43,655 bases of DNA from a virus, in IMG/VR virus record IMGVR_UViG_3300037574_000336, positions 1 through 43,655 of that record. One strand, 5' to 3'. Shown here one piece after another: positions 2,218-42,811 of the stretch. The stretch's first letter is position 1; every line of letters starts with the position of its first letter. The notes below the pieces were generated by a model. It was not told the origin of the DNA. It saw only the letters and a program-made list of their open reading frames with translations, and ran no database searches. Made by a program: the position numbers and the translations under genes.

Positions 2218-2218
2218 A

Positions 2219-2862: not shown

Positions 2863-2863
2863 T

Positions 2864-3148: not shown

Positions 3149-3173
3149 CGTTACGTTTTATCGTTTTATCGAC

Positions 3174-5197: not shown

Positions 5198-5228
5198 TTT
5201 TTCACAGCCTTTAAAGTATATAGGGAAA

Positions 5229-19057: not shown

Positions 19058-19911
19058 ATCTATTTTTAAACCTTGTTCGCGACCCGTTTAATTCTCATTC
19101 GGTGATTATGTCATCGATCTCCTTTAGCGTGGCCCCGGCCCTTATCGCGGCGGGGATTGGGATTGGGTCAAACATTCTTGGCAGTATCTTTGGAAGCTCA
19201 AAAAAGAAGGCTCCGAGGATGGCCGCTCCGGTGGATTTCAGCAAGGCGTGGGGCGAGGCGCAGTCCTCCAATTGGAAGAACATGCTTTCATACAAGGGGC
19301 TGGCCAGTGAAACTAATAAATTTAATCAATCAGAAGCTCTCGGCATGATGGAAACCGCGCTCCCGGGAATCGGTCAGGTGCGTAAACAGATGCTGGGGGC
19401 GGTTCAGGAAGACCTCACAACAAAGGGACTTCCGAAGTCCGTATCCCAGAACCTTTCAAGGAAGGCGGCTGAGATGGGATTGAGCCGGGGAACCTCTGGG
19501 CAACATGAGCAATTTAATTTACTTCGTGATTTTGGATTTAACCTTGTCGATTGGGAACGCGCCCGGCGCACCCGGGCAATTAATACACTTGGGGCAATCA
19601 TGCAGATTACTCCACGGCCCAACCCAATGTCCCCCAGTTCCATGTTTGCGGGAGGGGCCAATTCATTGACCGCCGCCGAGAAAAACCGTTCAGCCCTGCA
19701 ATCCTATTACAATGCAGAGGCGGCGGCTGAAAACGCCAACAGGCAATCCCGGGCAAATATGATCAGTGGAATTTTTGGTGCTGTAGGTGGCGCGGCGATG
19801 TCGGCGGCTGGCGGTGCATTCTCTGGGGGTGGGGCTACCGGCCAGTTATTTGGCGGCAATGCTTGGGGCCAAAATGCCCCGGCAACACCTTCATATTACT
19901 CTCAACGGTAA
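19054..19911 (+). CDS. Internal virion (ejection) protein candidate
   Basis: 285 residues from the ATG at 19054, which overlaps the previous stop (ATGA). A TTG at 19018 and an ATG at 19108 are alternatives. A Gly/Ala-rich hydrophobic segment (APALIAAGIGIGSNILGSIFG, about residues 24-44) is followed by a Lys-rich turn, a long helical body and a Gly/Ala-rich end (GIFGAVGGAAMSAAGGAFSGGG). Small glycine-zipper proteins with two such segments, located between tail genes and large internal proteins, are often ejected into the host envelope. The next two genes continue this class. Confidence 0.6.
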   Translation: MNLFLNLVRDPFNSHSVIMSSISFSVAPALIAAGIGIGSNILGSIFGSSKKKAPRMAAPVDFSKAWGEAQSSNWKNMLSYKGLASETNKFNQSEALGMMETALPGIGQVRKQMLGAVQEDLTTKGLPKSVSQNLSRKAAEMGLSRGTSGQHEQFNLLRDFGFNLVDWERARRTRAINTLGAIMQITPRPNPMSPSSMFAGGANSLTAAEKNRSALQSYYNAEAAAENANRQSRANMISGIFGAVGGAAMSAAGGAFSGGGATGQLFGGNAWGQNAPATPSYYSQR

Positions 19912-19917
19912 GTCTCC

Positions 19918-21810
19918 ATGGCCGAAGCTCAATTTTTAGATTCCGCTGGGACAAACCCATGGACAAACATAAATGCAACTGCGAATGCAACGCAAACGAT
20001 GTTTATGCGGGCGCAAACGATGCGGATTCAACGCGATCAGGAAGCCCGCGCACAACGCTCAGAAGACCGCACGGTCCAGACACATAACCAAACTCAGGAG
20101 TTAAACAGGCTCAAGATTGAGTCGGCTAGAAAGGGGCATGAGCGAGCCTTAACCACCGAGATAACCGAGGAGCATGAGGCTGAATCGATCTTACAGAAAC
20201 TTGAAGCCTTTAATAGCTCAGATATAGACCCGGAAACGGGAGTATGGCGTCCCGAAGATGGTTTTGCCCCCTTGGATGACCACGGTAATGAGATGCCACA
20301 AGAGTATAACCCAGAGGGGCTCACCCTCATAGAAGATGGTGGAATGTTCCGAGATAGGGCGATGGTGGTAGATCAGATATCTGGTAATAAGCTACTAGAG
20401 CATCCCGAGCATGGCTCCCGTATTCGGGGAGGGCTCGACAAGGCTAAAAGAGCCCTAGCGGCTCACGGAACACGCCGAAATCAGGCAATCAACCAGAGGT
20501 TCCTTGAGTTAAGGACAAAACTTTCCCATACCGCGACTCATACTTCTATGGATGAACTTAATAAGACTATGGAAGAGTTTGGTTATCTGAACGGGGTTTT
20601 AATGCAAGGCCCGGACGGTAAATTTGTGACCGGGGCCGATGAAATAGATAAAGTCCGAAAATTTTATCAGGACGCCATACAGACCAACATAAAGAACGAA
20701 CAGGCAATCACACTGTCAAATAACAAACTGGATACGGCCTACGATGCCAACCAAATTCGGCGCGATAAATTAGCCGAGGAGGCCCGCCAGTTCGATGCAA
20801 CCCTTGAACAGACGAAGGCAGAGGCTAGACAAGAAAACAGCAAACACCTTAAAGGGTCAAAAGGGATATTCATGGATATTATGAACTCCGATCCCAACGG
20901 TGGGGCTCTGGTCATGCAACAACATCAGGAGGTTGAAGATGATTTAGAGGACTTTCAAATAGTAATTGATTACCTTAAAGACCCCGCCAATCGGGGAATC
21001 ATTGATACGTGGACAGCGGGTACAACACGGGCAAAAGCGCAAAGGTTCCTAAATTTAAAAGCGAATATGGGGACGGATATGCCCGAAGAAATGGCTATGC
21101 TCAAGGGGACTCTGGTTGACGAATGGGTAAAGACTGCTTCTGGCTTGAAGGGAGCTTTATCAGAAAGGGAGACAGCACAAATTAACAAGGGGATGCCCAG
21201 CGGGACATGGTCAACTGCCGCATGGGTTCAGTGGTTGGAGGAGAAACGGGACCGGATTGCCCGAATAAAAGCCTCGAAAAGCATGGTGGGCTGGTGGTGG
21301 CCTACAGAGAAGACCACGATTAAATGGGAGGGGGAAGCGGGAAGCTCTGCCGTAATCGATGTCCTATACAACACCACCCCGGGCGTAGCCCCGGGAACGG
21401 AGGTTAACATCAACGCTTTCTTAGGCACACCGACCCCAACGACCCCAGAAGTAGACCCATTTGCCCCAGATACCCCAGCGGCCCCAGAAGTAGACCCATT
21501 TGCCCCAGATACCCCAGCGGCCCCAACGACCCCAGAAGTAGACCCATTTGCCCCAGATACCCCAGCGGGGAGATTGCTCGGTTCCCCAGTTGTTCCGGAA
21601 TGGCTTGGAGACGAGAGTGGTATAACAATACGTGGCCGTACAACTTATAAGAGAGAAGGCAAGGATGGCGTCTATATAGTTCTTGATAATGGTGATGTCC
21701 TCTATCAGCAATATTTCCATAGCAATACTGGCCAGCTTCTCCGGAAAGGAAAAGACCCTGATGTAGACGGGGATTGGGAGCCGCTCACAGATATAAGTAC
21801 CCTCTACTAA
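19918..21810 (+). CDS. Internal virion protein candidate with acidic Pro-rich repeat linker
   Basis: 630 residues. It is mostly charged helices and coiled coil (about residues 25-430, with many Gln, Glu, Arg and Asn). A linker of three exact repeats of PEVDPFAPDTPAA follows (about 508-549), then a compact C-terminal beta segment (SGITIRGRTTYKREGKDGVY). The helical Gln/Ala/Arg-rich body and its place between a glycine-zipper protein and the giant protein suggest a core or ejection protein. The linker may be an exposed hinge or a binding tail. It is coupled to the giant gene by TAATG. No enzymatic motif is seen. Confidence 0.6.
   Translation: MAEAQFLDSAGTNPWTNINATANATQTMFMRAQTMRIQRDQEARAQRSEDRTVQTHNQTQELNRLKIESARKGHERALTTEITEEHEAESILQKLEAFNSSDIDPETGVWRPEDGFAPLDDHGNEMPQEYNPEGLTLIEDGGMFRDRAMVVDQISGNKLLEHPEHGSRIRGGLDKAKRALAAHGTRRNQAINQRFLELRTKLSHTATHTSMDELNKTMEEFGYLNGVLMQGPDGKFVTGADEIDKVRKFYQDAIQTNIKNEQAITLSNNKLDTAYDANQIRRDKLAEEARQFDATLEQTKAEARQENSKHLKGSKGIFMDIMNSDPNGGALVMQQHQEVEDDLEDFQIVIDYLKDPANRGIIDTWTAGTTRAKAQRFLNLKANMGTDMPEEMAMLKGTLVDEWVKTASGLKGALSERETAQINKGMPSGTWSTAAWVQWLEEKRDRIARIKASKSMVGWWWPTEKTTIKWEGEAGSSAVIDVLYNTTPGVAPGTEVNINAFLGTPTPTTPEVDPFAPDTPAAPEVDPFAPDTPAAPTTPEVDPFAPDTPAGRLLGSPVVPEWLGDESGITIRGRTTYKREGKDGVYIVLDNGDVLYQQYFHSNTGQLLRKGKDPDVDGDWEPLTDISTLY
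21443..21568 (+). repeat. Three exact 39-base coding repeats
   Basis: Identical 39-base units lie at 21443-21481, 21482-21520 and 21530-21568. The 9-base CCCCAACGA occurs before the first unit and between the second and third. Each encodes PEVDPFAPDTPAA (last residue G in the third). Perfect DNA identity means recent expansion, and the unit number may vary between relatives. This is a coding tandem repeat and not a CRISPR array. Confidence 0.9.
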
Positions 21811-24800
21811 TGGCAACTCTAACTTCTGTACCACGGGAAGTGTGGACGGCGATTTTCGATGACCCCGCCAACGCTGAACTAGCCGCCAAAGCTCGGGCGG
21901 GGGATGAGGACGCAAAGTTACAATTAACTGATCTTGCCTCGGCCCTCCACGAATCGAAAGCAGAGCCTGAGTTGTATGGTTCAGACCCAGCTACAGCCCC
22001 CGCTCCGGAGCCCACTCCACATGAGCAACAGGTTCAGAAAAAAGTAACGACCGAGGAATGGTTACAGCGGGTGACAGACGTTGAGGCTGGCAAGCCGGGG
22101 GACTTGAACTGGGATTCGATGTCCGAAGCAGGTATCAACCGTGTCAAGGTAAACAATGGGTTCGTACAAGCGGTTCAGAAGTCCGGACGGGAGGGGACCA
22201 AACATTTTAATACGGGCGTATCTGGTGAAATGATGTTTAACCTCCCCGGGGAGGAAGCCCGAAACTTGGACCCAACCCAAGTGGGTAAGGGGCCAAACTG
22301 GGTGCAGGAGAAGTGGCAACGTGTTGGAATGACCGCATCAACCCTTTTCGGTCAGGGTCGCGATAAAAGGATGAAGAGTGACGATGTGTATCGTCACCTC
22401 CTAAAACAACCGAATGAGGATTGGGCAAAAAAAGCTTTTCTAGGGGTATTGAAAGACGAGCTAACCCGGACGATAGCTCAACAAGGGGAGTCCCTAGGCA
22501 AATATGACGAGGGGGGTCAGATTAAGTTCCTTGATGAAGAACCCGGCGCGGGCGGTAAGGCGGGCGTAATTGCCTCGACTCCTTCGGAGGACGCGATGGC
22601 GAAAGCTCAGGTAGACATGTTTAAATGGTTTCCTGAGAAGTATATGGCCAACGTGGGTAAAACCGTGGAACAGGTTGGGGGCGATGCCTTCATGGACGCG
22701 GGCAAAGATTTACAGGATTACCTACACACCCTTCAAAAAAATGACCCCGGCCTCTGGGAGCGTATTACAGATGGCGCAAACAACCTAACCAAGGATGGGG
22801 TTACCGCCTTACAGCAATTAATGGAGGAAGACCGGCAAATGCTCATACGGTACAGCGAGCTTACCGGGCGGGGCATTACGTTCATGCACGACAAGGACAT
22901 GTATTATTGGTTTAAAAAGCGCGGGATGCTCCCGAAGCATGACGAAATCGGCGCGGGCGAACACCTTAAAATGGGGCTGGGAGTTATAGGCCACGCCGCC
23001 CAAGGGGTTGCTGTAATGGGGGGCCAATTAATAAAAGAGGCTGGGTTAGGAGCCGCTGGGCTCTGGGGGAATCTTATTCAAGGTAAAGGGTCCGAAGCCC
23101 TTGACGAAGTAAATGAACATATTTTGCAGAACTGGGTAGGTATCTGGACCGATTCAGCCGCCATGCAAGCTAATGATTGGCGCATCCTTATGGGCGGTTT
23201 CGAGAAGTTCATGTCTAAATCTGTAGAGGGTAAGGAACTAAAAGCTTGGTATGGGTCTGAACACATTGCTGACCCGGAAAGAAGGGAAGAATATCGCGAA
23301 GCCCATGCAGAAATTGAACGTCAGTACATGGCAAACGCCATGGCGAATAAGGCAACATGGGAGAATGTAACCAACGAGACAGCACTGAGGTTGAGCCTCG
23401 ACCCGAACACGGCTCACAAGATGTTGCTGGCGGGTTCTTTCGTAACTGACCTCACAAACTATATCCCCTTGGGCGGCTGGGGTAAGACGGGGGCCGGTGC
23501 GGCGTTAAAAGCAAGTAATAAGATTGCCACAAAAGTTGCTAAAACCGGGGCGGTAAGGGCGGCAAAAGAAGTTTCCGAAGCGGCGAATACAGCCTTGGCT
23601 AAGGCTCAGGCTGATTACACCAACGCTGTTTTTAAAATTGGGCCTCCCCATTCCTCCGGAGCCCCCCGAACCCCCACGCAAGTGGCAACTTTAGACGCCG
23701 CTAAAACCGCGGTACTGGACGCCGGCGCGGCATATACGAAGGCTCAGGATAAATACGCAAAGATTGCATTAGAAACTTCAAACGCGCTTCAGGAAGCCGC
23801 TGAAAAAGGGGGGCTTCATTTGGGCGCACACGCGACCAAACTTCTCGGTCAGGCACTCGGTAAGACTATCGATGCGAGTGAAAGTGTAATCCGGAAAGGT
23901 GTGGACAAGGCATTCCCCTTGATGAGCCAAGAGGCCAAAGATACTTTGGTTCGCCGTACCATGACAACGTCTGGAACTCTCGCGCTTGGTGGGGCGGCGT
24001 ATGGGGCGGTTGAACTTTTTGATGACGATAGCAAGGAAGGGGCAAATATCCTACAGGTCGGGGCGACTGTCCTTGGCGCGGCTGGTGGGTTTGGCCACGG
24101 TTGGGTTCGTGCTGTGGCCCGGGATGTGGAAAGGATGGGGACCATGGCTACATTTGGTAGAGCGGTAAACCCGTTACATAAGCAGGTTTTAAAAGAGGCC
24201 AAGGATGGGGTTATAGAGATTTCGGGAACTACGGGGCTGGCCTTGAACATGTGGGATTCGCTTTCTAATGCATACCACTGGACAACGAATTTCCCCGGCA
24301 ATGCCCTTGGCGCGGTCACGGGAAGGGAAGGACTTGGTGAAGGCGTCAACACGGCTTTACAGTATGTAGCTGGTTCGGTCCTGAAGGCTCCTCAACGCAC
24401 CCTGAAGGCGGGATTGAGCCGAGAGGGCTTGCTCGCTATGGGGATACAAGGGACCATTGGTTACATTGGCGCAGGGGGAGAATCTGGAGGTTTCTGGACA
24501 GGGCTTGGAATGGGGATGGGGTTTGTAGCCGGCGGTGGTGTACTCGGGTCATTCATGCCGTTCCATAATATAGCTGAAGCAAATAAAATGGCGGCGGCAA
24601 CACGGCGGCAACTCCGCGAGACTTTGAGGGATACAGATACTGAGACCCTAGTCCAATTTGAAAGGCTCACACTGGAGCAACAGACATTTCTGGCATGGGC
24701 TCAGAACGGGATGCCCGGCTTCAACCTCCGGGTTGTGGACGAGGGCGCGGCGTATGGCCCCGGGTCATTTAACCGGGACTCCAAAACGATAGTTATAAAC

Positions 24801-27800
24801 CGGAGCCATCCGAACTGGGAGTCTTTTTACAAGAAGGAGGTCATGGCGCATGAATCCGCGCACGGGATACTAGCCAATAACCCGGCAATGAGGACGAGGG
24901 TTATGCAATCCATTTTAGGTGGTAGTGATGGTAATGGGTTCGCCGGCAAATTTGCAGTACGCGGCGATGATGGTAAGGTAACTCACTCGGTCGGGCCAGC
25001 GACCCGACACGAAGTGGCTCATCTAAAACGGACTCACCCCGGGAGCCAACCCCTCTCCAGAGAGGAAATCGCAAGGAGAACCGGGTTATCTGTTGAGGCG
25101 GTTGAATCTATCAACCAGCAACGCCCGCTTGAGGGGGACGTTAATTTACAGATATCTGATTTAAATCACAACGATGTTCATGTAAATACCACGGATCAAT
25201 TTAAGACTTACCAAGAGAATTATTTAAAAAACCTGAACCCTCATCACAGGACGGCCCTTGAGCAGGAACATTATACGGAAAGGAGGATGCAGGAATATAT
25301 TGCTGAAGAGTATTTCGCAGAGTCATTTGCTAACTATAATAAGAACTTTTCCTTGAAAAAGGCCCGCGACATGCGCCGACCTTCAAGTAGGGAATCTAGT
25401 CTCGAAAAGGAAATGGGGAGGAGTCTCAGACAGACTCGTACAGATTTATTAGCCCGCATGGGCGCGATCTTTGACCAGACCGGGAAGATTGAGTCTGTAA
25501 TATTTACGGACCAACACTCTGGTACGAAGAAAATTGAGAAACTGAGTAAAGACCCAAACATTGAAGCACTAATCCGGGCGCATAACCACGATGTGGCTCA
25601 AGGCAAACTCCCCGAGGCGTCCTACGTGGAGGGTCGTAGTGAGTTTTCAAGCCCGGATGATTATGCAAAACCGGGGTTTGATGGGAATGCCCTCAAGGGT
25701 TGGGTGGCGAACGGTCGTTTTGAGGTCAACCCGGCCACCGGAATTCCTGATGGCGTTACAGTAGACAACGCCACCGGCGATTGGTCTATAACTGACCACA
25801 GGAAAATTCGCAGGACCGGGGCGAAGGCAGACAGGGCGGCAAAGGAACTTGGTGACGCGGTCGTGAATTATATAACTGACAATCTCCCGCCAGTAATAAC
25901 CAAGGGTGAACTTGTTGTTGAAATCGATAATGAGATTAATGCGCGAAGCAACGCTTCCCGGCCAAACGAAAAGCAAGCCTTGGAAGACTTCAGAGGTTAT
26001 GTCGAACAGACGTTCGCCGGTAGGCCACCCGATGCTGACGAGATTCGGGCATATATCCACAGCCAGCGATCTAACGCCCCCCGCAATATTCAGAATATGT
26101 GGGATGAGGTTTTAAACTGGGTAAATTCAAACATACAGGATGATGGGGTGGTAAAGCAAAGAACCACTTCTGACGGTAAGACTATCATCGCGGGTAGGTA
26201 TCTACCCGACACCCTCCTCGACCAATTGGAATCGCAGGGGCGATTCAACCCGGCCCAGCTAGAAAACATCCGCAAGTTAAATGATTTACTGAAGGCCAAC
26301 CTCGGCGGAGAGCCTCTTGTGTTCATGTACCAGACCGCTGGCAGACGAGGTCGGTATGCCTCAGTTCGTGCGGCTGAAAAATCCGCTTACGTTACGGGGT
26401 GGCAAATATCCGAGAAAGGGAATCTGATTTTCAGGGCATGGGACGCTGAAAAAATTATACAGAACGGAGCTAGGAGGTTGAAAACTAAAATGGGCAGGGA
26501 CTTGTACAACGGTAACCTGACCCAGTTGACCACAGATATCCACACGTACCTGAACAATCACGCAAATGGCCGGCGGGGCTATGAAGGGTTAGGTGACAGG
26601 TTTATGGAGAAAAAAGACTTCATACACTCCTTACTAGGAATAGGCAAACCGAGGTACGCTACAGCTTTTGGCGAGACTGTTACAGATGTGAGTCCTTACC
26701 ATACAGCACTAGATAGCTTAAAGCCCCCAAAGAACCCGAACACCGCTCTGAATAGTTTTCGCATCGACCGGACCAACTGGCTTGAAACCGCATCTTCAAA
26801 CAAGGTAAACTCCCGACTAGCCCCATTAGATAGGCCGTTGACCAGCCGCGAGCCCCCGGGGCCACGCGGAGCCTACCAACAGATTCGGAGGAACTACACC
26901 ACAGGTATTCTTCTAAACCCAGAGGCACTCACCCTGAACCTCGGCCACCACAGCCCGACCGAAGCTTGGATTAAGAATATATTCAAGAAGCGGTTTGGTC
27001 AAAAGGTTGGGGCGCAGGAAGCTTGGAGTCTACTGAAGGCCCGGTCTGGCGTTCGGGCTGAGTCAATATGGACGGGCCTTGATGTTTGGCTGGAAAAAAT
27101 GGCTCAGGGAAAAATGGGCAAGGATGAAAAGGGCAAGGTTAAAAAATCGGTCACCCCGGAGGAAATGTTAGAATTTCTGGACGAGAACCGGGTTACGTTC
27201 CAAAGAGAGTTATTAGCCACCGAACATCAATCAGGGGCTGATATCCCACAGACACCATGGCTCGACCGAATTGAAGAGGTTGGTCACGAAGCCGCAAGAA
27301 AAGAATTCAGCGTATTGGACGATGTCGTGGGGAAGACTAAAACACAAGTCGAGACAGCTTTTAAAAAAGCAGTAAAAGCAGAAGAAGACGCTGTAGCTCA
27401 GTCTAACGAACCCGGCCAAGCCGCTGTTCGCGATGCTGTTGCCGAGGGTCAGTATGAAACTTACGTCATTAAAAATGGCCGAGAAGGGTCTGGTAACTAT
27501 TTTAATATCCTGCTTCACGTTGATAATTTCCCCGACATGCCAAGCCCCAGCCACTTTGGGAGTAACCTACCGGGGTACACCGGCCACCTGATTTTAAAAG
27601 CCAGAAAGACTCTTGATGGTAAAAAAATCTTGATGCTTGAGGAAGCCCAAAATGATAGCTCTCGGCGGTTCCGTAAAGGTTCCGCGCAGTTCGGGGTATG
27701 GAAACGGGAGGAACAACTAGCATTTAAACATAAATTGGGGGAATGGACTAGCCGTGAACAGACTATCCGTAGGGAATTAGCTGAAAAAGCCGCGCCCCTT

Positions 27801-33800: not shown

Positions 33801-36800
33801 GCCGATGAGACATGGGATACGTATCTGGGTGGGACTCAAACCGCCACTGGCCGTCACGGGCCACTGGCCTATAGTAATTTCGTTGACAACCGGATGGCGA
33901 GTAAACGACACGGCCTTGCGGAGCTTACGCACCTATTGACTGAGGCAAAACGGGAGGGCAAAGTTTGGGACTCGGCTGAACACTACCGGCAAACCAACGA
34001 CCTCGACCCGGATTGGCGATTTGTAGGCAACAACTCTGAAGCTCATATGGTATGGAGGAAGGGTGACCGTATATTCAAGGAGATGAAACCAAGACCCTAC
34101 AACAAGGGATTCGGGGTAAATGATGCACACGTAGGGAAATTACTTAAACGCATGGCCCTGTTTAATGAATTTCTGGGAGCAGATATTGCGTTTGAGGCGG
34201 TCCACGTACACGACTCCAATAAAGCCTTTAAGGGAGAGCATGTACAGTCAGTAATCTTTTCCATGGAATTCCATGAGAATTTAAAACATGGCAGTACGAC
34301 CGAGGTACATGAGTTCTTTCAAAACGATGGCTGGACACGCGAACCCGCCCTACACCACGGCTGGTCGAAAGTGCTTCCCAACGGTAAAAAAGTTTTCCTC
34401 AGTGACGCCCATAATTCAAACGTGATGAAGACGAAGCCGATGAATTACGCTCAATGGTTGTCCAAGGAAATATATGGCGGGATGCATGACGATAGACAGC
34501 CCTCTAAACGCCTACCGGTTCAGGATTATCTGGATGGTTTTCAATATGAATGGCAGGAGGGTAAGCAGGTCGAGTGGCTCACCGGGGATGGGAATAAAGT
34601 TAAGGATGATTTTACGGGCTGGACGCGCATTAAGTTCGCAGATTTCAACCAACGCGCCGACTTTTTAAAGTTAATTGAGACTGACAATTCCGGGTCGGGC
34701 GTAATGTGGCGAAAAGAACTTCGGAGGAAGATTGAGTGGAAGCCCGACCCGAATGACTATGGGTTCTTTAATTCCGGGAATTCTTTAGACAACACCGGGC
34801 TTTACGTCAAATCTGACACCCCTTTTATAAAAGCGGTGACGCCGCACGTTGAGGGTAGTGGCGGTATGGGCGGCGGTCCTATTACAGTCGATAGGCGATT
34901 TTACGACCGCTCAGGAAAACGCAAGAACACTATAGAAAAATGGAATAGTCAGCGGCATGAAGCTGAAAACCTGCAAATTCGGTACGATGAATATCAGGCT
35001 AATTTTCAAGAGAAGATGGTCCCGGTAGATGTCATCGCATGGAATGACCCAACAAATGGACACTACACCCCGGGAACAATTAAATTTAATAAATGGTTCA
35101 ATGAGTCCAAAGCTGTAGACTCCTCCGGTCAGCCAAAGGTTTTTTATCGGGGCCAAGTGAGGCCATTGGAAAAACTGGAGGAGTATGTTTACGATGAATT
35201 CACTTACTCATACGGAAGAAGCGGCCTCTCGTTCACTGAGGTTCCTGAGATCGGCAACCTGTACGCTCATTCAAGGCCGAGTGGTGGTGGGGTATTCGAC
35301 AACTATAGGTTCACCAGCCACGGTGACGAAATAGGTTCGGTCACTCCGGTCTACCTCTCCATGCAGAATCCATTTCACTTGGCGAGGTCGAGCGTTTCTT
35401 ACGGGCGCGGCTCTCTACTCAATGTTTTGGATAATGCTAATTGGAACTTCTACGCCAACGAACCAAAAAGGAAGTCACACTTTCAAATACAAGACTTGAT
35501 CGGCCTGTATTGGAATCTGGATGACCCCGTGGAACCTATCAGCATAAAATTTGACAGTAGCTACCTGTACGGGGATGGGGAAGCCGCCATTGAAACCCCC
35601 AGCGATGCGGCAAAGTACGTTGAAAAGAAGTGGGAGAAGATTAAAAAATGGAATAAAAAAAATGGTGAGCTACATCCAGAATTCGATAAGCGCAACGAGG
35701 ATTTCGTGGAGGACATAAATTATATCACAGACATGACTACGGTTGATGTGTACGCGGTCGCAGACACGGATACCATGAGGTATTACGCCGAACGTAACGG
35801 TTATGACGGCATAGTTTTCGAGGATGTAGCGGAGGGCGCGGCTCATTATATGGGCAAAGAAACGGTTGGGGGCCGGCCCATTGAGGAGGTTGATGGCGTC
35901 ACCACCACCGAGATGGGAGAAAAATTAGAGCCTGACCAGTACACCTTTGAAACGTGGCGTCCATTTAAGGAGAAACAAATTAAGAGTGTTTGGAATGATG
36001 GTAACTACAGTAAAAAGGGCGGCGGCATCAGCCACACCCCGGGCTTGGACGCAAAATATCAGGCGGCTCTAGAATCCGGGGACATGAAAGCGGCGGCGGG
36101 GCTGGTTGAGAAGGCGGCAAAAGACGCCGGGTACACCGAGAAGGTTTACCACGGGACAACCTCTTCCGAATTTAAAGCAAACGAATTTGGGGCCACTGGC
36201 GGCGGCTTGGGGGGATTGGGCTGGCACTATCTTACAGACACACGAAAATTCGCCGAGGTGTACGGACCTGAAAACCTTTCCCTGATCGGGAAGCCCAGTG
36301 AGGCGTTTGAATTTGATGTCACGCTGGCCAGCCAATTGGACCCGACTAAGAAAAGTGAGAAAGGGAAATGGCAAGCATTGCCCACCAAGATTCCCGGGCT
36401 CATTGTTACATTAGATTCAAGGGCCGGCGGGGATGTTGGGTTCAACATCACCCACCAGCAGTCTGGGTTGAAGCTAAACCCCCGGAGATTTGACAAGGCC
36501 GATACCGAGGCCGCACTGGCAAACCTTCAAAGGTTAAACCTGAACTGGGATGTTCCCGAGGCGAAGATTCAAAAATTTACCAAGCTCACCAAGAAGAAAA
36601 TTTTCAACGCAATGGAATCGGCGTGGGGAACAGAGATGAAGGCTGAGTTTTCCTATCGCTCCGAGCGTGAGGGTATCCCGGGTGAGGTGCATGAGTTCTT
36701 CCTTAAAGTGGATAAACCCCTTGACCTGACAGACCTGAATGGGGGGCGTTACATTGCGTCAACCACTCTCAAGAAACGTCTGGCCGAGGCCGGTATTGAA

Positions 36801-39359
36801 ATTGACCCGGCCAAGTACGGTTTGGGTGAACGAAAGATGTACCAGTATTTTAATTCCTATGATTTCGTAAAGGACTTCCGGGAAAAGCTGATCCGGGCCG
36901 GCTATGATGGCCTGAAATTTAATGACGTTGTGGAGGATACAGCCAAGGGGGTGACCACGGTCGCGGTTCGGGGCAACCAGATCAAGAGCGCGGCGGTTGC
37001 CACTTCCGAGAATGGCAACCCAGTTCCACTGAGTCAGCGTTTTAACAAGGGACGAACTACAATTAATCATACGATGGGAATATCAATATCAGAATTTGTA
37101 CCGAAGGAACAGGAACGCGCCCAGCGTTCCGGGCATCAGCAAGGATTCATGGCCAAGACCAACGCCCCGGTCTACGAGATAACCGAGTCACCCAAGGAAG
37201 CTGGTCGAATACTTGATTTTGGTACAGGTAAAAAAGCTATTCACGCGGAAGCCCTGAGAACCGCCGGGTATGATGTTACCGCTTACGACTTTGAAGCCAC
37301 CACATCCATACATGATCCTGACGCGCTCACGCGCACCTACGACAAGGTTCTAGCCAGCCGGGTTCTGAATGTTCAGGACTCCGTGGCAATGCTTGACCTT
37401 ACAATCGAACAACTCCGCGCTTCGGTCGCAGACGAGGGTCACATTATAGCCAACTTCCCAACCAATCCGAGGTATGGGGCTTATGACCACATAGAGGGCC
37501 GTGGGGCTCAGGTTGATTTTCTTCAAGAAAAGCTATCCCAATATTTTGAGGTGCAAAAAATCGCCGGGAGCCGGGGAAGCCCCATATGGCGTCTGGAACC
37601 AATCCCGGAAACCAATTTCGGGATGTCTAAAAAAGATACAGATAGCGTTGTTAAAAACCTTGAACCGGAGGGCCGTTACCTAAAACCGATATCCTATTCA
37701 AAATCCGAATTGGTAGATGAAACCGGTTCAGGATACACGCCGGGACTGATATACCCCTTCATAGGGACTGAGGCTCCCATCCTCGCCAAGACCGTCTTCG
37801 ATGAGAACGGAACAGGCAATCCAAGGTATGCAAAGGCGGCGCAGGGGGGATTATCCGAGGCCGCTAAATATTTAAGCGATCTATTCCTCGACAGATTTGG
37901 TGAGGCCATCGATGCCCGGACTATAACTCCGGAACAGGAGTTGTGGTTAACCGACCAGTTTGTAATGGAAGCGGTTGACGCCGGGACCAAGACTGAGAAT
38001 AACGCACACTGGTATACAGACAGCATAGTTGAAACGCTCGACCATGCCGCCCGGATATTTCCTGAACTTGCGAAAAAGGAGGGTATGGACTACATCAGTT
38101 TCCTCGGGGCCATTGCAATCACTTCACAGAAGATGCGAGTTGAGCAGAACCTTAAAGGAGCGATACACCAGTACGAGTACCGCAGGGCAAATGGTAAGTT
38201 TGATTATGTGAAGGAGCATGGTGATGCCGCCGGGGCTGTAACTAATAACCTGAAGGTTTTTGACATGATGGTTGAAGAATATGGCGAGAAAGGATTCATG
38301 GATTTCATTCGTGCTGATTTCTCAGTAAAAGAATTATCTAGTCTCGTCAGTAAAATCACGGGCCGAGAAACTAGTGTAGCGGGTTATCAGACAGACATAG
38401 TCAAGGGCTCGGCAATTTTCGGCCCGAAGATTGGGCAAGGATTTTTCCAAAACCTTCTGGGGAATTATGACCCGGTAACAGTTGACCTCTGGTTGCGCCG
38501 AACGTATGGACGCCTGACCGGGCATGTATATGACCCTGAATTAACCCCGGGCATTATCGGGAGAATCGTTCAGGCATCCCGGACAAACGCCGGTAAGCTC
38601 AAGAATAATAATTTCTCTATCTCAAAGAACCTCCCGTTCTTATTGAAGCGGAAGATTACCGGCGAGTACTCAAAGGACGGCAAGGCCCGGTTCTCGTTGA
38701 CTGACAAAACCTTCAAGGAATTGTTTGACCCGGAAACTTCCGAGGGTCAGGCCAATGCCAAGAAAATATTTACCCTCGGGAAAAGGCTGGATCGGGAGTG
38801 GCAGAAAATATATGCCGCGCCGGGAAGGGAGATGAAGCGGACTATTAATAAATATAAGAATCAGGTTGAGGAGATTAAGAAAGAAGTTGCGAGCCTGAAC
38901 AAAGAGCGCGAGCGGGAAGAACCTTTTGAGAAGGGGGAGAAATCTAAAATAACAACGAAGCTCCGGTCCCGGGAGAAAACTCTGGAGCGGTTAGAGCGTC
39001 AGTTGCCGGGCCATATCGAAAAAGCTGACGCATTACACGAAGCTAAATTAACTGAGGTTCTGGCTATGAAACCTGAATGGGCATATGTCGGGGCGACTAT
39101 CAAAGATAAGTTGAGTCCGATTGACCTACCAACAGACCTAGAAAGAGCTATTATCAACAGAGTTTTTAATGTTGCCAGAAAGCGATTAAAAGACGAACAT
39201 GGACTAGACTACACGAACGCCGACCTACAAGCATTGCTCTGGTATCCCGAGAAAGATATCTGGTCATGGCTGACCAAAGGGACGCCTGAGAGTTCGTTAA
39301 ACGAGGACTACGGAACTGTAATGAAAAGGATAGCTGATGAGCGGGAAAATAGTAAATGA
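21810..39359 (+). CDS. Giant multidomain polyvalent virion/ejection protein
   Basis: About 5849 residues (roughly 640-650 kDa) from the ATG at 21810, in a TAATG overlap with the previous gene; a TTG at 21774 is a less likely start. The frame is uninterrupted to the TGA at 39357-39359. Order: polar N-terminus; hydrophobic Gly/Ala-rich segments (about 384-424, 717-768 and 877-919); HESAH metallopeptidase (1014-1018, with AEEYFAESFAN near 1166-1175); a split module typical of phage polyvalent proteins (about 1711-1968 and 2745-2960) with a coiled-coil insert; beta-rich unknown regions; kinase-like domain (about 4071-4213); two ADP-ribosyltransferase-like domains (about 4429-4727 and 4777-5085); Rossmann methyltransferase-like domain (about 5132-5266); conserved C-terminal modules. 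Large polyvalent proteins of phages and conjugative elements are thought to be injected with DNA to counter host defences. Location after internal-protein genes fits that. Maturation by its own protease is possible. Confidence 0.85.
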   Translation: MATLTSVPREVWTAIFDDPANAELAAKARAGDEDAKLQLTDLASALHESKAEPELYGSDPATAPAPEPTPHEQQVQKKVTTEEWLQRVTDVEAGKPGDLNWDSMSEAGINRVKVNNGFVQAVQKSGREGTKHFNTGVSGEMMFNLPGEEARNLDPTQVGKGPNWVQEKWQRVGMTASTLFGQGRDKRMKSDDVYRHLLKQPNEDWAKKAFLGVLKDELTRTIAQQGESLGKYDEGGQIKFLDEEPGAGGKAGVIASTPSEDAMAKAQVDMFKWFPEKYMANVGKTVEQVGGDAFMDAGKDLQDYLHTLQKNDPGLWERITDGANNLTKDGVTALQQLMEEDRQMLIRYSELTGRGITFMHDKDMYYWFKKRGMLPKHDEIGAGEHLKMGLGVIGHAAQGVAVMGGQLIKEAGLGAAGLWGNLIQGKGSEALDEVNEHILQNWVGIWTDSAAMQANDWRILMGGFEKFMSKSVEGKELKAWYGSEHIADPERREEYREAHAEIERQYMANAMANKATWENVTNETALRLSLDPNTAHKMLLAGSFVTDLTNYIPLGGWGKTGAGAALKASNKIATKVAKTGAVRAAKEVSEAANTALAKAQADYTNAVFKIGPPHSSGAPRTPTQVATLDAAKTAVLDAGAAYTKAQDKYAKIALETSNALQEAAEKGGLHLGAHATKLLGQALGKTIDASESVIRKGVDKAFPLMSQEAKDTLVRRTMTTSGTLALGGAAYGAVELFDDDSKEGANILQVGATVLGAAGGFGHGWVRAVARDVERMGTMATFGRAVNPLHKQVLKEAKDGVIEISGTTGLALNMWDSLSNAYHWTTNFPGNALGAVTGREGLGEGVNTALQYVAGSVLKAPQRTLKAGLSREGLLAMGIQGTIGYIGAGGESGGFWTGLGMGMGFVAGGGVLGSFMPFHNIAEANKMAAATRRQLRETLRDTDTETLVQFERLTLEQQTFLAWAQNGMPGFNLRVVDEGAAYGPGSFNRDSKTIVINRSHPNWESFYKKEVMAHESAHGILANNPAMRTRVMQSILGGSDGNGFAGKFAVRGDDGKVTHSVGPATRHEVAHLKRTHPGSQPLSREEIARRTGLSVEAVESINQQRPLEGDVNLQISDLNHNDVHVNTTDQFKTYQENYLKNLNPHHRTALEQEHYTERRMQEYIAEEYFAESFANYNKNFSLKKARDMRRPSSRESSLEKEMGRSLRQTRTDLLARMGAIFDQTGKIESVIFTDQHSGTKKIEKLSKDPNIEALIRAHNHDVAQGKLPEASYVEGRSEFSSPDDYAKPGFDGNALKGWVANGRFEVNPATGIPDGVTVDNATGDWSITDHRKIRRTGAKADRAAKELGDAVVNYITDNLPPVITKGELVVEIDNEINARSNASRPNEKQALEDFRGYVEQTFAGRPPDADEIRAYIHSQRSNAPRNIQNMWDEVLNWVNSNIQDDGVVKQRTTSDGKTIIAGRYLPDTLLDQLESQGRFNPAQLENIRKLNDLLKANLGGEPLVFMYQTAGRRGRYASVRAAEKSAYVTGWQISEKGNLIFRAWDAEKIIQNGARRLKTKMGRDLYNGNLTQLTTDIHTYLNNHANGRRGYEGLGDRFMEKKDFIHSLLGIGKPRYATAFGETVTDVSPYHTALDSLKPPKNPNTALNSFRIDRTNWLETASSNKVNSRLAPLDRPLTSREPPGPRGAYQQIRRNYTTGILLNPEALTLNLGHHSPTEAWIKNIFKKRFGQKVGAQEAWSLLKARSGVRAESIWTGLDVWLEKMAQGKMGKDEKGKVKKSVTPEEMLEFLDENRVTFQRELLATEHQSGADIPQTPWLDRIEEVGHEAARKEFSVLDDVVGKTKTQVETAFKKAVKAEEDAVAQSNEPGQAAVRDAVAEGQYETYVIKNGREGSGNYFNILLHVDNFPDMPSPSHFGSNLPGYTGHLILKARKTLDGKKILMLEEAQNDSSRRFRKGSAQFGVWKREEQLAFKHKLGEWTSREQTIRRELAEKAAPLFKDYNTEGTPVVRGDLHGPEGKPLEEGWVGHLDHGAPLPEETPGASDPSAQIKLEDSDAGQKLADLIVWEGGMEASGQHLLRGETALGAFLNSRRLRPRSISLPDFMEPLRGEARLIENAPKELQEALKHAPSVWKDFLEAYDNAAENYNDGLRSTVDIVPFAPLEDIVPYSGESPSTLSGTAYQGHPLILFNELFNKAFLPHPNIKGTHGAVAHHPGPFSNRKELLVAGVGWNEIPIFKDLVSIRATKLLGVKRKYKKFAEFDEVALADLMRGEPHRWRGGLVNLSRATMRETVNKLLKKVTAKEREALLDFSPETLIKDIKQIGRQLQESQRKLNDLSGRRRDISERHGTHQRAPEELFKDYEKKWRAYDLYHSKHSHKKLNDVREESFIHIVKKLKELKIERDAAEKKIRDNPSTYNEINKVVSGIQIQQLNLRRHTDALGGVIIARQAQVAANKMKPLYEALAKAEGESKVLFHKRAKDPTANVKYEKAEFIENKLRREIKTLMQGHLNVMENLGHTLIDPFTEHNLGIPQKLKPKDYRSGSPDLLPWKPGHPTLGEEGMIVQGTGPINEFTLNSGTIDLITNTQQYHFQKIRELVDIQNAIEQGEPLGMVRYNLRGANKLKHSPEGGIVRDLPIGGNWANSSSRQLANAPLDSLGIHDSDIVRSHLVPKSRMAKHLSKRLPQAARKENIHKRDLLHSMQEIEDLSGVITSGELGPPPKESSERASRAKFDDERESIKKGDPGQKVKEFPFQERWLNLMVDHAIYFAAQNGFEGLSLVREDHARARYNLSDDFQALRVRRDGVKTDSEGNTIPLYEISGVRTVKDSPAADASSFQKDPHHHLGEVLKGGLTGWSRGQKNSVEEHIGGEHTQMVIDGINEQMSEADYLAGAASVANVPDGPPPFNIYSHTLSGDGLFAGGHWAKKLYGSHIPNAIKASLKKVGKIMGKDKVPKLETTMIEGIGEVYDSRVHLRKVYTFSNFSLALPHRRGGTHHGLSHSANFDKDMGYGSVRPPGVNDIPGELTERVFDSLFHHGNFDYGRGKLQNELGDTHPGTPPLTVRIMDESLETGPKESSLLGQSATMTFRGSQTGYRDSPVYADPQVGTNHGLEPSMVVPMWNLHDPRSQATSKKGSSYKGQSVVDKIYQNSVTVMEAMVRLGIKDPEKQVKRFTPLHINRPNEMITQNHFKKGRKGQHGEKPERSMNNIGTATPTPLPRQGDRVAAAIPETGHRTDNIGSLYLPDTDTYRSQMLTPVGDKPMGVLVELRNGEFIFLPATELGSGRVSPFNAPGVGTTAPGGKDWPGSIQHVGKFDMHDLGGSERTLDAIAVGKEKQVDGALGENRINLEPDVNLQKSRLRDTQGEHVLNEEVGTTQRPLSDDDAIHSSQYGREYEGQYSFIYETDGDHASVSHTQRRDLEVVDATLSQYMEKAGWERMDIAWNPHVEGGPFSRKAYLDSGREGQLPLATRPDDLPVAYRITPDMLGDENTIGYKPEEAYEYVAHTLNRGYGGRLARRYNAAMFLDHAITGEMAKILGVENPNLGQGPSWDKGRLRSRLDREHDRIRNEVKGVEARDTATTQSVQAEYKSIFGKEAPQSRAEAESLKAEGILYQKEIRRPEGSGAHTDFTYEEFWLDPAIKKGSHREGSLMEGHRDPSAYDSFSYSVPLSNLFQLIVDQGRWAIPDVLLRGEYGTPTHRLTQLATLRDYIMGHRDLTNTERMKLGIHTRLVDVEGPDGATIAFRESQTGYRGLRDDLQNVPLDVASAAGDTPIRTAVVRDRTIAPEGDSSGYPWSKWNDPKLPALPFKDAEGTAWGHSVANNGIRDVLALRPGEIANHHIDPDALTHRDRTRPTADRSRKLRDHEGNVIADVGEYRNAVFNEFKKFEAVGQGLEHFHIDLPPEFRAKLMDVGMSSFTPGIIGFDLKSPANKNKKTSPAHWAERVVALTHGHRPIEEIYTKDDTIYEHNPKRGHRPLDPLELEMVKAMGLTPKAIEEHISMRADETWDTYLGGTQTATGRHGPLAYSNFVDNRMASKRHGLAELTHLLTEAKREGKVWDSAEHYRQTNDLDPDWRFVGNNSEAHMVWRKGDRIFKEMKPRPYNKGFGVNDAHVGKLLKRMALFNEFLGADIAFEAVHVHDSNKAFKGEHVQSVIFSMEFHENLKHGSTTEVHEFFQNDGWTREPALHHGWSKVLPNGKKVFLSDAHNSNVMKTKPMNYAQWLSKEIYGGMHDDRQPSKRLPVQDYLDGFQYEWQEGKQVEWLTGDGNKVKDDFTGWTRIKFADFNQRADFLKLIETDNSGSGVMWRKELRRKIEWKPDPNDYGFFNSGNSLDNTGLYVKSDTPFIKAVTPHVEGSGGMGGGPITVDRRFYDRSGKRKNTIEKWNSQRHEAENLQIRYDEYQANFQEKMVPVDVIAWNDPTNGHYTPGTIKFNKWFNESKAVDSSGQPKVFYRGQVRPLEKLEEYVYDEFTYSYGRSGLSFTEVPEIGNLYAHSRPSGGGVFDNYRFTSHGDEIGSVTPVYLSMQNPFHLARSSVSYGRGSLLNVLDNANWNFYANEPKRKSHFQIQDLIGLYWNLDDPVEPISIKFDSSYLYGDGEAAIETPSDAAKYVEKKWEKIKKWNKKNGELHPEFDKRNEDFVEDINYITDMTTVDVYAVADTDTMRYYAERNGYDGIVFEDVAEGAAHYMGKETVGGRPIEEVDGVTTTEMGEKLEPDQYTFETWRPFKEKQIKSVWNDGNYSKKGGGISHTPGLDAKYQAALESGDMKAAAGLVEKAAKDAGYTEKVYHGTTSSEFKANEFGATGGGLGGLGWHYLTDTRKFAEVYGPENLSLIGKPSEAFEFDVTLASQLDPTKKSEKGKWQALPTKIPGLIVTLDSRAGGDVGFNITHQQSGLKLNPRRFDKADTEAALANLQRLNLNWDVPEAKIQKFTKLTKKKIFNAMESAWGTEMKAEFSYRSEREGIPGEVHEFFLKVDKPLDLTDLNGGRYIASTTLKKRLAEAGIEIDPAKYGLGERKMYQYFNSYDFVKDFREKLIRAGYDGLKFNDVVEDTAKGVTTVAVRGNQIKSAAVATSENGNPVPLSQRFNKGRTTINHTMGISISEFVPKEQERAQRSGHQQGFMAKTNAPVYEITESPKEAGRILDFGTGKKAIHAEALRTAGYDVTAYDFEATTSIHDPDALTRTYDKVLASRVLNVQDSVAMLDLTIEQLRASVADEGHIIANFPTNPRYGAYDHIEGRGAQVDFLQEKLSQYFEVQKIAGSRGSPIWRLEPIPETNFGMSKKDTDSVVKNLEPEGRYLKPISYSKSELVDETGSGYTPGLIYPFIGTEAPILAKTVFDENGTGNPRYAKAAQGGLSEAAKYLSDLFLDRFGEAIDARTITPEQELWLTDQFVMEAVDAGTKTENNAHWYTDSIVETLDHAARIFPELAKKEGMDYISFLGAIAITSQKMRVEQNLKGAIHQYEYRRANGKFDYVKEHGDAAGAVTNNLKVFDMMVEEYGEKGFMDFIRADFSVKELSSLVSKITGRETSVAGYQTDIVKGSAIFGPKIGQGFFQNLLGNYDPVTVDLWLRRTYGRLTGHVYDPELTPGIIGRIVQASRTNAGKLKNNNFSISKNLPFLLKRKITGEYSKDGKARFSLTDKTFKELFDPETSEGQANAKKIFTLGKRLDREWQKIYAAPGREMKRTINKYKNQVEEIKKEVASLNKEREREEPFEKGEKSKITTKLRSREKTLERLERQLPGHIEKADALHEAKLTEVLAMKPEWAYVGATIKDKLSPIDLPTDLERAIINRVFNVARKRLKDEHGLDYTNADLQALLWYPEKDIWSWLTKGTPESSLNEDYGTVMKRIADERENSK
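22960..24565 (+). other. Giant protein: hydrophobic, probably membrane-inserting region
   Basis: Residues about 384-919 contain several Gly/Ala-rich hydrophobic stretches: LGVIGHAAQGVAVMGGQL (near 390), TLALGGAAYGAVEL (near 722), ILQVGATVLGAAGGFGHG (near 745) and GLGMGMGFVAGGGVLGSF (near 897). Charged helices separate them. This is how ejection proteins of short-tailed phages that cross the host envelope look. No signal peptide is present, which fits delivery from the virion. Confidence 0.5.
24708..25340 (+). other. Giant protein: HExxH zinc metallopeptidase domain
   Basis: MAHESAHGIL gives zinc ligands H1014 and H1018 with catalytic E1015. It is preceded by a strand-type KTIVINRSHP and followed at about 1166-1175 by AEEYFAESFAN, a gluzincin-like helix that can supply the third ligand (E1167 or E1171). 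Between them lies a helix-turn-helix-like stretch (REEIARRTGLSVEAVESI). Metallopeptidase domains of this form occur in phage polyvalent proteins. The substrate could be host proteins or the giant protein itself. Confidence 0.7.
26942..30690 (+). other. Giant protein: polyvalent-protein module split by a large insertion
   Basis: The first part (26942-27715) shows GVRAESIWTGLDVWLEKM, VTPEEMLEFLDENRVTF, then YETYVIKNG, NYFNILLHV and ILMLEEAQND (EEAQND at 1944-1949). In relatives I recall, the same order reads GVK-EE-GL-WL, LLxWL, NYREVLLTLP and VLFIEEIQSD, followed soon by PFxxxW-x-RMxRYAAENGYD. Here the second part, PFQERWLNLMVDHAIYFAAQNGFEGLSLV (long helix, from residue 2750), lies about 785 residues later. 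It continues to GDGLFAGGHWAKKLYGSHIP, matching the usual GEGMKGFYDKxxP end. The insertion contains a coiled coil (about 2312-2510). Family function is not known to me. Confidence 0.6.
31051..31089 (+). repeat. 39-bp in-frame direct repeat, copy 1
   Basis: This stretch matches 33013-33051 at 36 of 39 positions. It encodes ATMTFRGSQTGYR (the last two bases of the first codon lie inside the repeat). The copies lie 1962 bases (654 codons) apart in the same frame of the giant gene. Flanking sequence does not stay similar beyond this core. Confidence 0.85.
33013..33051 (+). repeat. 39-bp in-frame direct repeat, copy 2
   Basis: Second copy of the repeat at 31051-31089, differing at three bases. It encodes ATIAFRESQTGYR. 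Near-identity at DNA level over a short core, with diverged flanks, suggests a recent exchange, gene conversion or a constrained peptide motif. Confidence 0.85.
34019..34446 (+). other. Giant protein: polyvalent kinase-like domain
   Basis: Residues about 4071-4213. GNNSEAHMVWRKGDRIFKEMKP has the N-lobe pattern with a candidate ATP lysine, LLKRMALFNEFLGADIAFEAV the helix C-like and next strand, and VQSVIFSMEF a hinge-like strand. FLSDAHNSNVM corresponds to the catalytic-loop type DAHPGNV seen in kinase domains of polyvalent proteins (Pfam Kinase-PolyVal type). The histidine-asparagine loop is present. A classical DFG is not obvious, so activity is uncertain. Confidence 0.65.
35094..35990 (+). 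other. Giant protein: ADP-ribosyltransferase-like domain 1
   Basis: WFNESKAVDSSGQPKVFYRG is the start of the phage ART-type domain (usual form WFxxSKVVDxxGxPxVVYHGT). GYDGIVFED and KEKQIKSV are its last strands. The HGT histidine is arginine here (YRG) and the final catalytic position appears as Gln in KQIK. It may therefore be an altered transferase. Confidence 0.6.
36138..37062 (+). other. Giant protein: ADP-ribosyltransferase-like domain 2
   Basis: KVYHGTTSSEFKANEFG keeps the HGT nicotinamide-binding motif. GLGWHYLTDTRKFAEVYG corresponds to the second strand and Tyr region. GYDGLKFND, then VAVRGNQIKSA and NPVPLSQRF are the terminal strands and tail. It follows ART 1 by about 50 residues. 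This copy looks more complete at the first motif and is the better candidate for NAD-dependent activity. Confidence 0.65.
37203..37610 (+). other. Giant protein: Rossmann SAM methyltransferase-like domain
   Basis: Residues about 5132-5266. GRILDFGTGKKAIHAEAL is motif I with the GTG loop, TAGYDVTAYDFE gives the second strand with an acidic end, and YDKVLASRVLNV is the motif IV/post-I strand. HIIANFPT follows. The NPPY/DPPY tetrad of amino-DNA methylases is missing, so a DNA base target is not shown. Other small-molecule or protein targets are possible. Confidence 0.6.
37850..39359 (+). other. Giant protein: conserved C-terminal modules
   Basis: Residues about 5347-5597 are helical with FGPKIGQGFFQNLLGNYDPVTVDLW (a segment near 5540 recalling a conserved FGPKxG-NL-G-PVTxDxW block in other phage polyvalent proteins). 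A Lys/Glu coiled coil follows, then NADLQALLWYPEKDIW (about 5803-5818), which resembles an ADLQAxLWYxEK motif in the same class. Function unknown. Confidence 0.5.
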
Positions 39360-42579: not shown

Positions 42580-42592
42580 TGTTTTGTTCTCC

Positions 42593-42811
42593 TTAGCTGA
42601 CTTCGCAAAGTGAATTGTAGTCAGGCGTGTTGTCGGCGTTGACGGGAATGGCCCAATTACCATCCCGAGAAATGTAGTTTCCGATTTCCTCCCGATAGGT
42701 GAATTGGGTGAGGTCACGGCAACGGTCTTGTGGGGGGTAACAATTGGCTTGCGCGGCGGTCAAGGGTCCGGGGTTTTCGAGGTCGAAAATGTATATGATG
42801 GGCTTAGGCAT
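42593..42811 (-). CDS. Small protein, unknown
   Basis: 72 residues: MPKPIIYIFDLENPGPLTAAQANCYPPQDRCRDL and on, with several Cys and aromatic residues. A ribosome binding site GGGAGAACAAAACA lies before the ATG at 42811, almost the same as that of the recombinase. Its end overlaps the recombinase leader (the recombinase Shine-Dalgarno begins at its stop codon), so the two are probably coupled. No family is recognised. Confidence 0.65.
   Translation of the reverse strand: MPKPIIYIFDLENPGPLTAAQANCYPPQDRCRDLTQFTYREEIGNYISRDGNWAIPVNADNTPDYNSLCEVS

What the first reader, a model, noticed from the sequence alone, without database searches (positions are those of the whole stretch)
21810..39359. Single 5849-residue polyvalent protein combining peptidase, kinase-like, two ART-like and methyltransferase-like domains
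One uninterrupted frame occupies 40% of the window. It joins ejection-type hydrophobic segments to at least five effector-like domains. Polyvalent proteins are known in phages, but this combination in one chain, placed right after internal-protein genes, suggests a virion-carried multi-effector against host defence or metabolism.
Basis: partly seen in the sequence, partly recalled or inferred. Interest (0 to 1): 0.85.

Follow-up and report, generated by a model that had tools for sequence, protein, structure and literature searches.

The report
Giant cysteine-free injected phage effector chain
A short-tailed phage spends 40% of its genome on one 5,849-residue protein that strings together several host-modifying enzymes; [quoted passage not shown]

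Summary
The open frame is real: 21810-39359, 5,849 aa. It is a podoviral ejection-type "polyvalent protein". Residues 1-1699 form a chassis with a zinc-peptidase signature (HExxH plus a distal Glu). A cargo bay (1700-5349) holds a split polyvalent module, a Kinase-PolyVal domain, two ART-PolyVal domains and a methyltransferase. Residues 5350-5845 form a conserved helical C-terminal module. Two syntenic sister phages keep both ends but carry only about 500-1,000 aa of cargo.

(1) The chain has no cysteine at all (0/5,849; about 44 expected). Related giant proteins have 5 Cys in 73,975 aa, against 0.96% in neighbouring genes. Ejection proteins of T7, P22, N4, SP6 and P-SSP7 are likewise almost cysteine-free. 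This supports virion carriage and threading of the whole chain. (2) In relatives, a short phage-specific peptide (LFMPA, VAPRQQ, TRARR, YxPG) recurs at module boundaries. The window carries [FYH]T[PTM]G at six junctions, but that motif alone is not significant by blind discovery.

The class is known (Iyer 2017). The size, chassis-cargo design, cysteine exclusion and boundary peptides look unreported. Release of domains by proteolysis is an untested inference.

The parts
21810..39359 (+). Giant polyvalent protein gene, 5,849 aa, no cysteine
21810..26906 (+). N-terminal chassis, residues 1-1699, conserved in sister phages (about 28-30% identity by BLASTP)
24567..25466 (+). Zincin-type peptidase domain (residues 920-1219)
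   Evidence: alignment A3; AF2 model pLDDT 72 with three strands then a helix bearing HExxH; weak Foldseek hits led by zinc metallopeptidases
24849..24863 (+). HESAH (residues 1014-1018), invariant HExxH zinc motif
25308..25310 (+). Glu1167, invariant, probable third zinc ligand
26895..26906 (+). Boundary peptide YTTG (residue 1696), aligned with YHPG/YYPG of sister proteins at the chassis end
27483..27677 (+). N half of the 'EIQSD' polyvalent module (residues 1892-1956)
   Evidence: probability 92%
30051..30662 (+). C half of the same module (residues 2748-2951), separated from the N half by about 790 aa
   Evidence: probability 93%
33543..33554 (+). Boundary peptide FTPG (residue 3912)
33924..34436 (+). 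Kinase-PolyVal-like domain (residues 4039-4209)
   Evidence: detail
35064..35075 (+). Boundary peptide YTPG (residue 4419)
35118..35996 (+). ART-PolyVal domain 1 (residues 4437-4729)
   Evidence: E 6e-7, 30.7 bits (cut-off 31.2)
36033..36044 (+). Boundary peptide HTPG (residue 4742) between the two ARTs
36057..36995 (+). ART-PolyVal domain 2 (residues about 4750-5062)
   Evidence: E 4e-9, 38 bits
37068..37079 (+). Boundary peptide HTMG (residue 5087)
37185..37472 (+). Methyltransferase (Methyltransf_23) core (residues 5126-5221)
37734..37745 (+). Boundary peptide YTPG (residue 5309)
37857..39344 (+). Conserved C-terminal helical module (residues 5350-5845), motifs GPKIGxGF...PVTxDLWxRRT and NADxQAxLWYPEKDIW
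   Evidence: alignment A1; AF2 pLDDT 86; BFVD matches only to phage polyvalent proteins, E to 7e-13
19018..19911 (+). Upstream internal-protein candidate 1, 297 aa, 0 Cys, conserved in sisters
19918..21810 (+). Upstream internal-protein candidate 2, 630 aa, 0 Cys

Best explanation
This is the third and largest ejection protein of a short-tailed phage, in the position of T7 gp16, which has grown into a polyvalent effector carrier. The conserved N-terminal chassis and C-terminal module form the delivery frame. Between them sits an exchangeable cargo bay of effector domains (kinase, two ADP-ribosyltransferases, methyltransferase, an uncharacterised polyvalent module). The protein is packed in the head, threads unfolded through the tail and envelope conduit at infection, and refolds in the host, where the effectors act early. 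Cysteine is excluded over the whole length because a thiol exposed during passage through an oxidising compartment could crosslink and jam the chain. The zinc peptidase in the chassis may cut at the short boundary peptides to free the cargo. Shown here: domain content, synteny, chassis-cargo conservation, total cysteine exclusion, boundary peptides in relatives. Inferred: packaging, threading, the reason for cysteine exclusion, the effector targets. The proteolytic release step is the weakest (about 0.35 on its own).
For: Position after tail tube genes and two cysteine-free internal proteins, syntenic in two sister genomes. The N-terminal 1,700 and C-terminal 500 residues are conserved while cargo ranges from about 0.5 to 3.65 kaa. 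0 Cys in 5,849 aa against an expected 44 (P about 7e-20), and 0 in-frame TGY against 81 expected from codon-position composition. Giants of relatives 5/73,975 against 391/40,873 in other long ORFs of the same contigs. Controls: T7 gp15 0/747, gp16 0/1318, gp14 1/196; N4 gp50 0/3500, gp51 0/644, gp52 0/150; P22 gp7/20/16 0/1309; SP6 0/2487; P-SSP7 gp15/16 0/2082. In one search, internal or ejected proteins total 1 Cys in 21,120 aa and other proteins 102 in 16,113. Domains. Boundary peptides lie within 5 aa of homology breakpoints: LFMP group 35/45 (9.9 expected), RQQ 7/11 (1.1), YxPG/TPG 6/13 (1.5).
Against: No virion proteomics exists for this phage. Scaffold proteins and the N4 capsid protein also lack Cys, so its absence is not exclusive to ejected proteins. 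In myophage P1 the head-packaged DarA, DarB and DdrB do contain Cys (1/639, 9/2255, 2/995), so the rule is not universal for packaged proteins; the P-SSP7 gp14-like internal protein also has 4 Cys in 148 aa. In the window, blind motif discovery does not single out the boundary peptide (16 of 60 shuffles do as well), and no peptide occurs between residues 1700 and 3911. The kinase lacks the family's conserved Gln and the downstream acidic site was not aligned. Foldseek hits for the peptidase are weak (E above 0.3).
Confidence: 0.77

Rival explanations
1. The chain is ejected and works as one uncut multidomain protein, like N4 vRNAP; the recurring boundary peptides are only joining scars or flexible linkers left by module shuffling.
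For: N4 gp50 carries an MPTase domain and is packaged unprocessed (Iyer 2017, read). Homology breakpoints coincide with the peptides, as recombination joints would.
Against: Codons differ between copies of the same peptide, so the amino acids rather than the DNA are kept. Each phage uses its own peptide, and the peptide groups broadly follow the peptidase homology groups.
Confidence: 0.4
2. Processing is done by a host protease, or a phage protease acting in trans, rather than by the chassis peptidase.
For: P22 gp7, an ejected protein, is annotated as trimmed by the host OpdA protease. Within the LFMP group the peptidases are quite diverse while the peptide stays the same.
Against: The chassis peptidase keeps its zinc ligands invariant across all ten aligned homologues, so it is under selection to do something.
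Confidence: 0.2
3. The gene is not a virion protein but an intracellular effector or anti-defence protein expressed after infection.
For: Its domains (ART, kinase, methyltransferase) are all enzymes that act in the cytosol, and no virion data exist.
Against: It sits directly after two internal-protein genes and has no cysteine over 5,849 residues, whereas TerL and other cytosolic proteins of the same phage do. Kinase-PolyVal domain copies on Verrucomicrobiota genomes have 0.44% Cys.
Confidence: 0.08
4. The single giant frame is an assembly artefact joining two genes.
For: The 3,650-aa middle has no close relative in the collections searched.
Against: The same gene with both ends exists in two sister genomes; the frame is open; the cysteine exclusion continues across the middle.
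Confidence: 0.02

Closest known systems
Polyvalent proteins of phages and conjugative elements (Iyer et al. 2017, PMC5512222)
   Same: Many disparate effector domains in one chain: MPTase, ART-PolyVal, Kinase-PolyVal, MTase. Predicted to be injected with the DNA. MPTase proposed to process the chain.
   Different: 5,849 aa in a 43.7-kb podophage. Chassis plus exchangeable cargo. Complete exclusion of cysteine. Recurring phage-specific boundary peptides. The paper's text contains no mention of cysteine, linkers or short motifs.
T7 gp14/gp15/gp16, P22 gp7/gp20/gp16, N4 gp52/gp51/gp50 ejection proteins
   Same: Gene position, three-protein set, large last protein, no cysteine (one Cys in T7 gp14).
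   Different: No sequence match found to gp16 or vRNAP in the phage collection searched; carries several effectors instead of a transglycosylase or RNA polymerase.
Microcystis phage Mel-JY33 'lysin' (4,012 aa) and Limnohabitans phage DC33 giant protein (3,125 aa)
   Same: Giant podophage polyvalent proteins, Cys-free or nearly so (0 and 1); DC33 shares part of the C-terminal module.
   Different: Other cargo and other boundary peptides; only the C-terminal module of DC33 matched the window protein.
Phage P1 DarB/DdrB/DarA
   Same: Head-packaged anti-restriction polyvalent proteins; DdrB and DarA are proteolytically processed (Iyer 2017).
   Different: Myophage; contain cysteines; no homology found.

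Membership tests
Polyvalent protein class | Several domains of unrelated biochemical activity in one chain | tested here: met
   Two ARTs, MTase, kinase-like, peptidase
Polyvalent protein class | Phage structural gene neighbourhood | tested here: met
   TerL, portal, capsid, tail tube genes upstream, syntenic with sisters
Polyvalent protein class | Delivered with the DNA at infection | not testable with these tools
   Indirect support from cysteine exclusion
ART-PolyVal (PF18760) | Score above curated cut-off of 31.2 bits | tested here: met
   Domain 2: 38.0 bits. Domain 1: 30.7 bits, just below
Kinase-PolyVal (PF18762) | Pfam model match | tested here: not met
   No match in the window at E up to 1
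Kinase-PolyVal (PF18762) | Full-length profile alignment with Glu before strand 2, strand-3 Lys, DxHxxN motif | tested here: met
   hhalign 92%, NNSEAH 4074, FKEMK 4089, SDAHNSN 4198
Kinase-PolyVal (PF18762) | Conserved Gln in last N-lobe strand | tested here: not met
   Met in that position in the alignment; possibly divergent or inactive
MPTase-PolyVal (PF18818) | Pfam model match | tested here: not met
   No match at E up to 1
Zincin metallopeptidase superfamily | HExxH in a helix plus distal Glu, three-stranded sheet before | tested here: met
   Invariant in A3; AF2 secondary structure agrees; fold search weak
Podoviral ejection proteins (T7 gp16-like) | Third internal protein after the tail tube genes | tested here: met
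Podoviral ejection proteins (T7 gp16-like) | Absence of cysteine | tested here: met
   0/5849; controls. This is a correlate measured here, not an established definition
Podoviral ejection proteins (T7 gp16-like) | Presence in the virion core | not testable with these tools
   Needs proteomics or cryo-EM

The most novel reading that the evidence does not exclude
Podophage ejection proteins obey a general 'no cysteine' rule imposed by passage through an oxidising envelope compartment. Giant polyvalent proteins obey it over their whole length because effector cargo rides through the same channel. The cargo is then released inside the host by a cognate peptidase cutting a phage-specific repeated boundary peptide, which makes these injected self-processing polyproteins with swappable effector cassettes.
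Probability: 0.33. Interest if true: 0.82.

Novelty: new variant of a known kind. Interest (0 to 1): 0.63.

Why it matters
If right, cysteine absence is a simple sequence test for which podophage proteins are injected, including effectors of unknown function, and it can be checked by virion proteomics on laboratory phages. Boundary peptides would mark where each injected effector starts and ends, give a way to parse giant phage proteins that HMMs cannot, and predict protease-site pairs. The protein also shows how a small phage can deliver at least four host-modifying activities at the moment of infection with one gene.

Tried and rejected
Pfam and PHROGs scans of 900-aa pieces gave only ART, MTase and a weak DUF7178 match. 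INPHARED tblastn of the first 900 residues, the cargo and the kinase region found nothing. IMG/VR scans with the first 1,300 residues, the capsid protein and the kinase region found nothing. I suspected a HhH-GPD DNA glycosylase in the C-terminal module from GPKIG...PVTxD, but Pfam, PDB sequence and PDB fold searches gave no support, so I dropped it. The claim that the window's own boundary peptide is significant by itself was rejected (16/60 shuffles reach it); the case rests on relatives. Conserved recombination DNA at the boundaries was rejected because codons vary among copies, although APRQQ copies share several codons. The survey with the EIQSD alignment reached only close relatives. Breakpoint enrichment was not significant for the Dolichospermum FSR and Microcystis LFQ proteins.

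Full report
Observation. The frame at 21810-39359 is real: ATG start overlapping the stop of the preceding gene, 5,849 codons without a stop. The window is a whole IMG/VR virus record of 43,655 bp with a podophage gene order. By homology with two sister records (G007, 47.0 kb; G021, 50.7 kb), TerL (60%), portal (50%), scaffold, capsid protein (49%), tail tube A and B, one internal protein and the giant gene lie in the same order.

Anatomy. BLASTP against relatives found with the C-terminal part (32 IMG/VR loci) splits the chain into three. Residues 1-1699 match the N-terminal part of the sister proteins (2,496 and 3,001 residues stop-to-stop). Residues about 5350-5845 match their C-termini and many other phage giants. 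The 3,650 residues between have about 500 and 1,000 residues in the sisters. So there is a fixed chassis, a fixed tail module and a cargo bay of variable size.

Domains. (a) Chassis residues 920-1219: in ten homologues with 16-34% identity to the window, HExxH and a distal Glu are invariant. The AF2 model (pLDDT 72) shows three strands followed by the HExxH helix and a later helix with the Glu. The PDB fold search gives only weak hits, but its head is dominated by zinc metallopeptidases (IrrE/PprI, BlaR1, selecase, lethal factor). (b) Residues 1892-1956 and 2748-2951 are the two halves of a module found in other polyvalent proteins (here called EIQSD after its motif), parted by about 790 residues. 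(c) Residues 4039-4209 match a profile of Kinase-PolyVal domains taken from genomes of the phylum of a Verrucomicrobiota MAG, probability 92%, E 5e-7 for one comparison; unrelated segments reach 15% at most. Iyer et al. state that this kinase type occurs mainly in (pro)phages of Verrucomicrobia-Chlamydia and Bacteroidetes. The only genome-collection relative of the C-terminal module is on a Verrucomicrobiota MAG contig. A Verrucomicrobiota host is therefore a reasonable guess, not shown. (d) Two ART-PolyVal domains and a Methyltransf_23 domain. (e) The C-terminal module has an AF2 model at pLDDT 86, no PDB relative, and strong fold matches only to phage proteins, several annotated as polyvalent; Pfam DUF7178 is a weak relative.

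Cysteine exclusion. The 5,849 residues contain no cysteine. The rest of the window's proteins contain 0.75%, so 44 were expected (P about 7e-20). In-frame TGY codons: 0, against 84 and 144 in the other frames and 81 expected from codon-position composition; no other residue departs nearly as far. The two genes just upstream are also cysteine-free (0/297, 0/630), while TerL has 11/589. In the window protein and the related or similar giants taken together there are 5 cysteines in 73,975 residues, against 391 in 40,873 residues of other long ORFs on the same contigs; the Dolichospermum jumbo-phage protein L083 (6/2407) was left out of that sum as the one clear exception. Controls with known function: T7 gp15 and gp16, N4 gp50, gp51 and gp52, P22 gp7, gp20 and gp16, and SP6 and P-SSP7 large internal proteins are all cysteine-free; T7 gp14 has one Cys. 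Pelagiphage HTVC028P gp34, a stand-alone EIQSD protein encoded between internal proteins, is cysteine-free too. In the eight phages, internal or ejected proteins have 1 Cys in 21,120 aa and other proteins 102 in 16,113. Limits: scaffolds and the N4 capsid protein are also Cys-free, the P-SSP7 gp14-like protein (counted among the others) has 4 Cys in 148 aa, and P1 DarA/DarB/DdrB contain Cys, so the pattern is tied to the podophage route rather than to packaging in general. I found no mention of it in the polyvalent-protein paper, the ejection-protein review PMC8954989 or the N4 vRNAP paper PMC12633501; the library holds open-access papers only. The N4 paper discusses unfolding during ejection as an open question. 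Passage through an oxidising compartment is my explanation, not a shown cause.

Boundary peptides. Inside each of several relatives one short peptide recurs through the cargo: [RK]L[FY]MPA in the largest group, VAPRQQ, TRARR, and [RN][YF]xPG in the sisters. Several exceed all 60 local shuffles (L009, L011, L015, L051, L027, L029, L030). They sit at homology breakpoints: within 5 residues for 35/45 (LFMP, 9.9 expected), 7/11 (RQQ, 1.1 expected) and 6/13 (YxPG with the window, 1.5 expected); these proteins share ancestry, so the counts are not fully independent. Codons vary between copies. Peptidase homology groups broadly follow the peptide groups. In the window, [FYH]T[PTM]G occurs six times in the giant (0.38 expected) and only twice in the other late genes checked. 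The six sites fall at the chassis end, before the kinase, before ART1, between the ARTs, between ART2 and MTase, and before the C-terminal module. The pattern was chosen after seeing the sites. The untuned sister pattern [YF]xPG occurs four times (1.65 expected), three of them at junctions, so the window alone is only suggestive. Iyer et al. proposed that MPTases process polyvalent chains and cite processing of P1 DdrB, but also that N4 vRNAP stays unprocessed.

Mechanism. Best supported: a podoviral ejection protein carrying a bay of effectors, packed, threaded and refolded in the host. Less certain: release of the effectors by the chassis peptidase at the boundary peptides. Unknown: the targets of ART, kinase and MTase.

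Novelty. The class is known; the gene is a new, unusually large variant. The whole-length cysteine exclusion and the boundary peptides are the parts that would surprise a specialist and can be tested directly.

Noticed in passing
41911-42717 (-): Serine recombinase (Resolvase plus Recombinase domains), with a homologue in sister G021: the phage is probably temperate or derived from a temperate phage.
   Followed up: partly
34-792 (+) and 817-2217 (+): A sulfotransferase-family protein (Sulfotransfer_2) and a fibre protein with the GP4 gp80 domain at the left end of the record.
   Followed up: no
40215-40934 (-): DUF932 protein among the leftward genes.
   Followed up: no
31071 and 33033 (residues 3088 and 3742): A repeated segment, AT(M/I)(T/A)FR.SQTGYR, about 654 residues apart in the unassigned part of the cargo; nature unknown.
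   Followed up: no
L086 7222-10086 (Pelagibacter phage HTVC028P gp34): A stand-alone EIQSD-module protein, 0/954 Cys, encoded between internal virion proteins: a predicted separate ejected effector.
   Followed up: partly
L087 3334-15372 (Microcystis phage Mel-JY33): A 4,012-aa cysteine-free giant annotated only as 'lysin', with LFQ-type peptides at three places including just before an HExxH peptidase.
   Followed up: partly
L045 (Limnohabitans phage DC33, PQ492659): The record's taxonomy line says Inoviridae, but it is a 39-kb genome with a 3,125-aa giant protein sharing the C-terminal module; the classification looks wrong.
   Followed up: no
L083 6202-13365 (Dolichospermum phage Dfl-JY45): Large polyvalent protein with several ART-like repeats and FSR/FAR-type boundary peptides, but with 6 cysteines, from a 209-kb phage: an exception to the cysteine rule.
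   Followed up: partly
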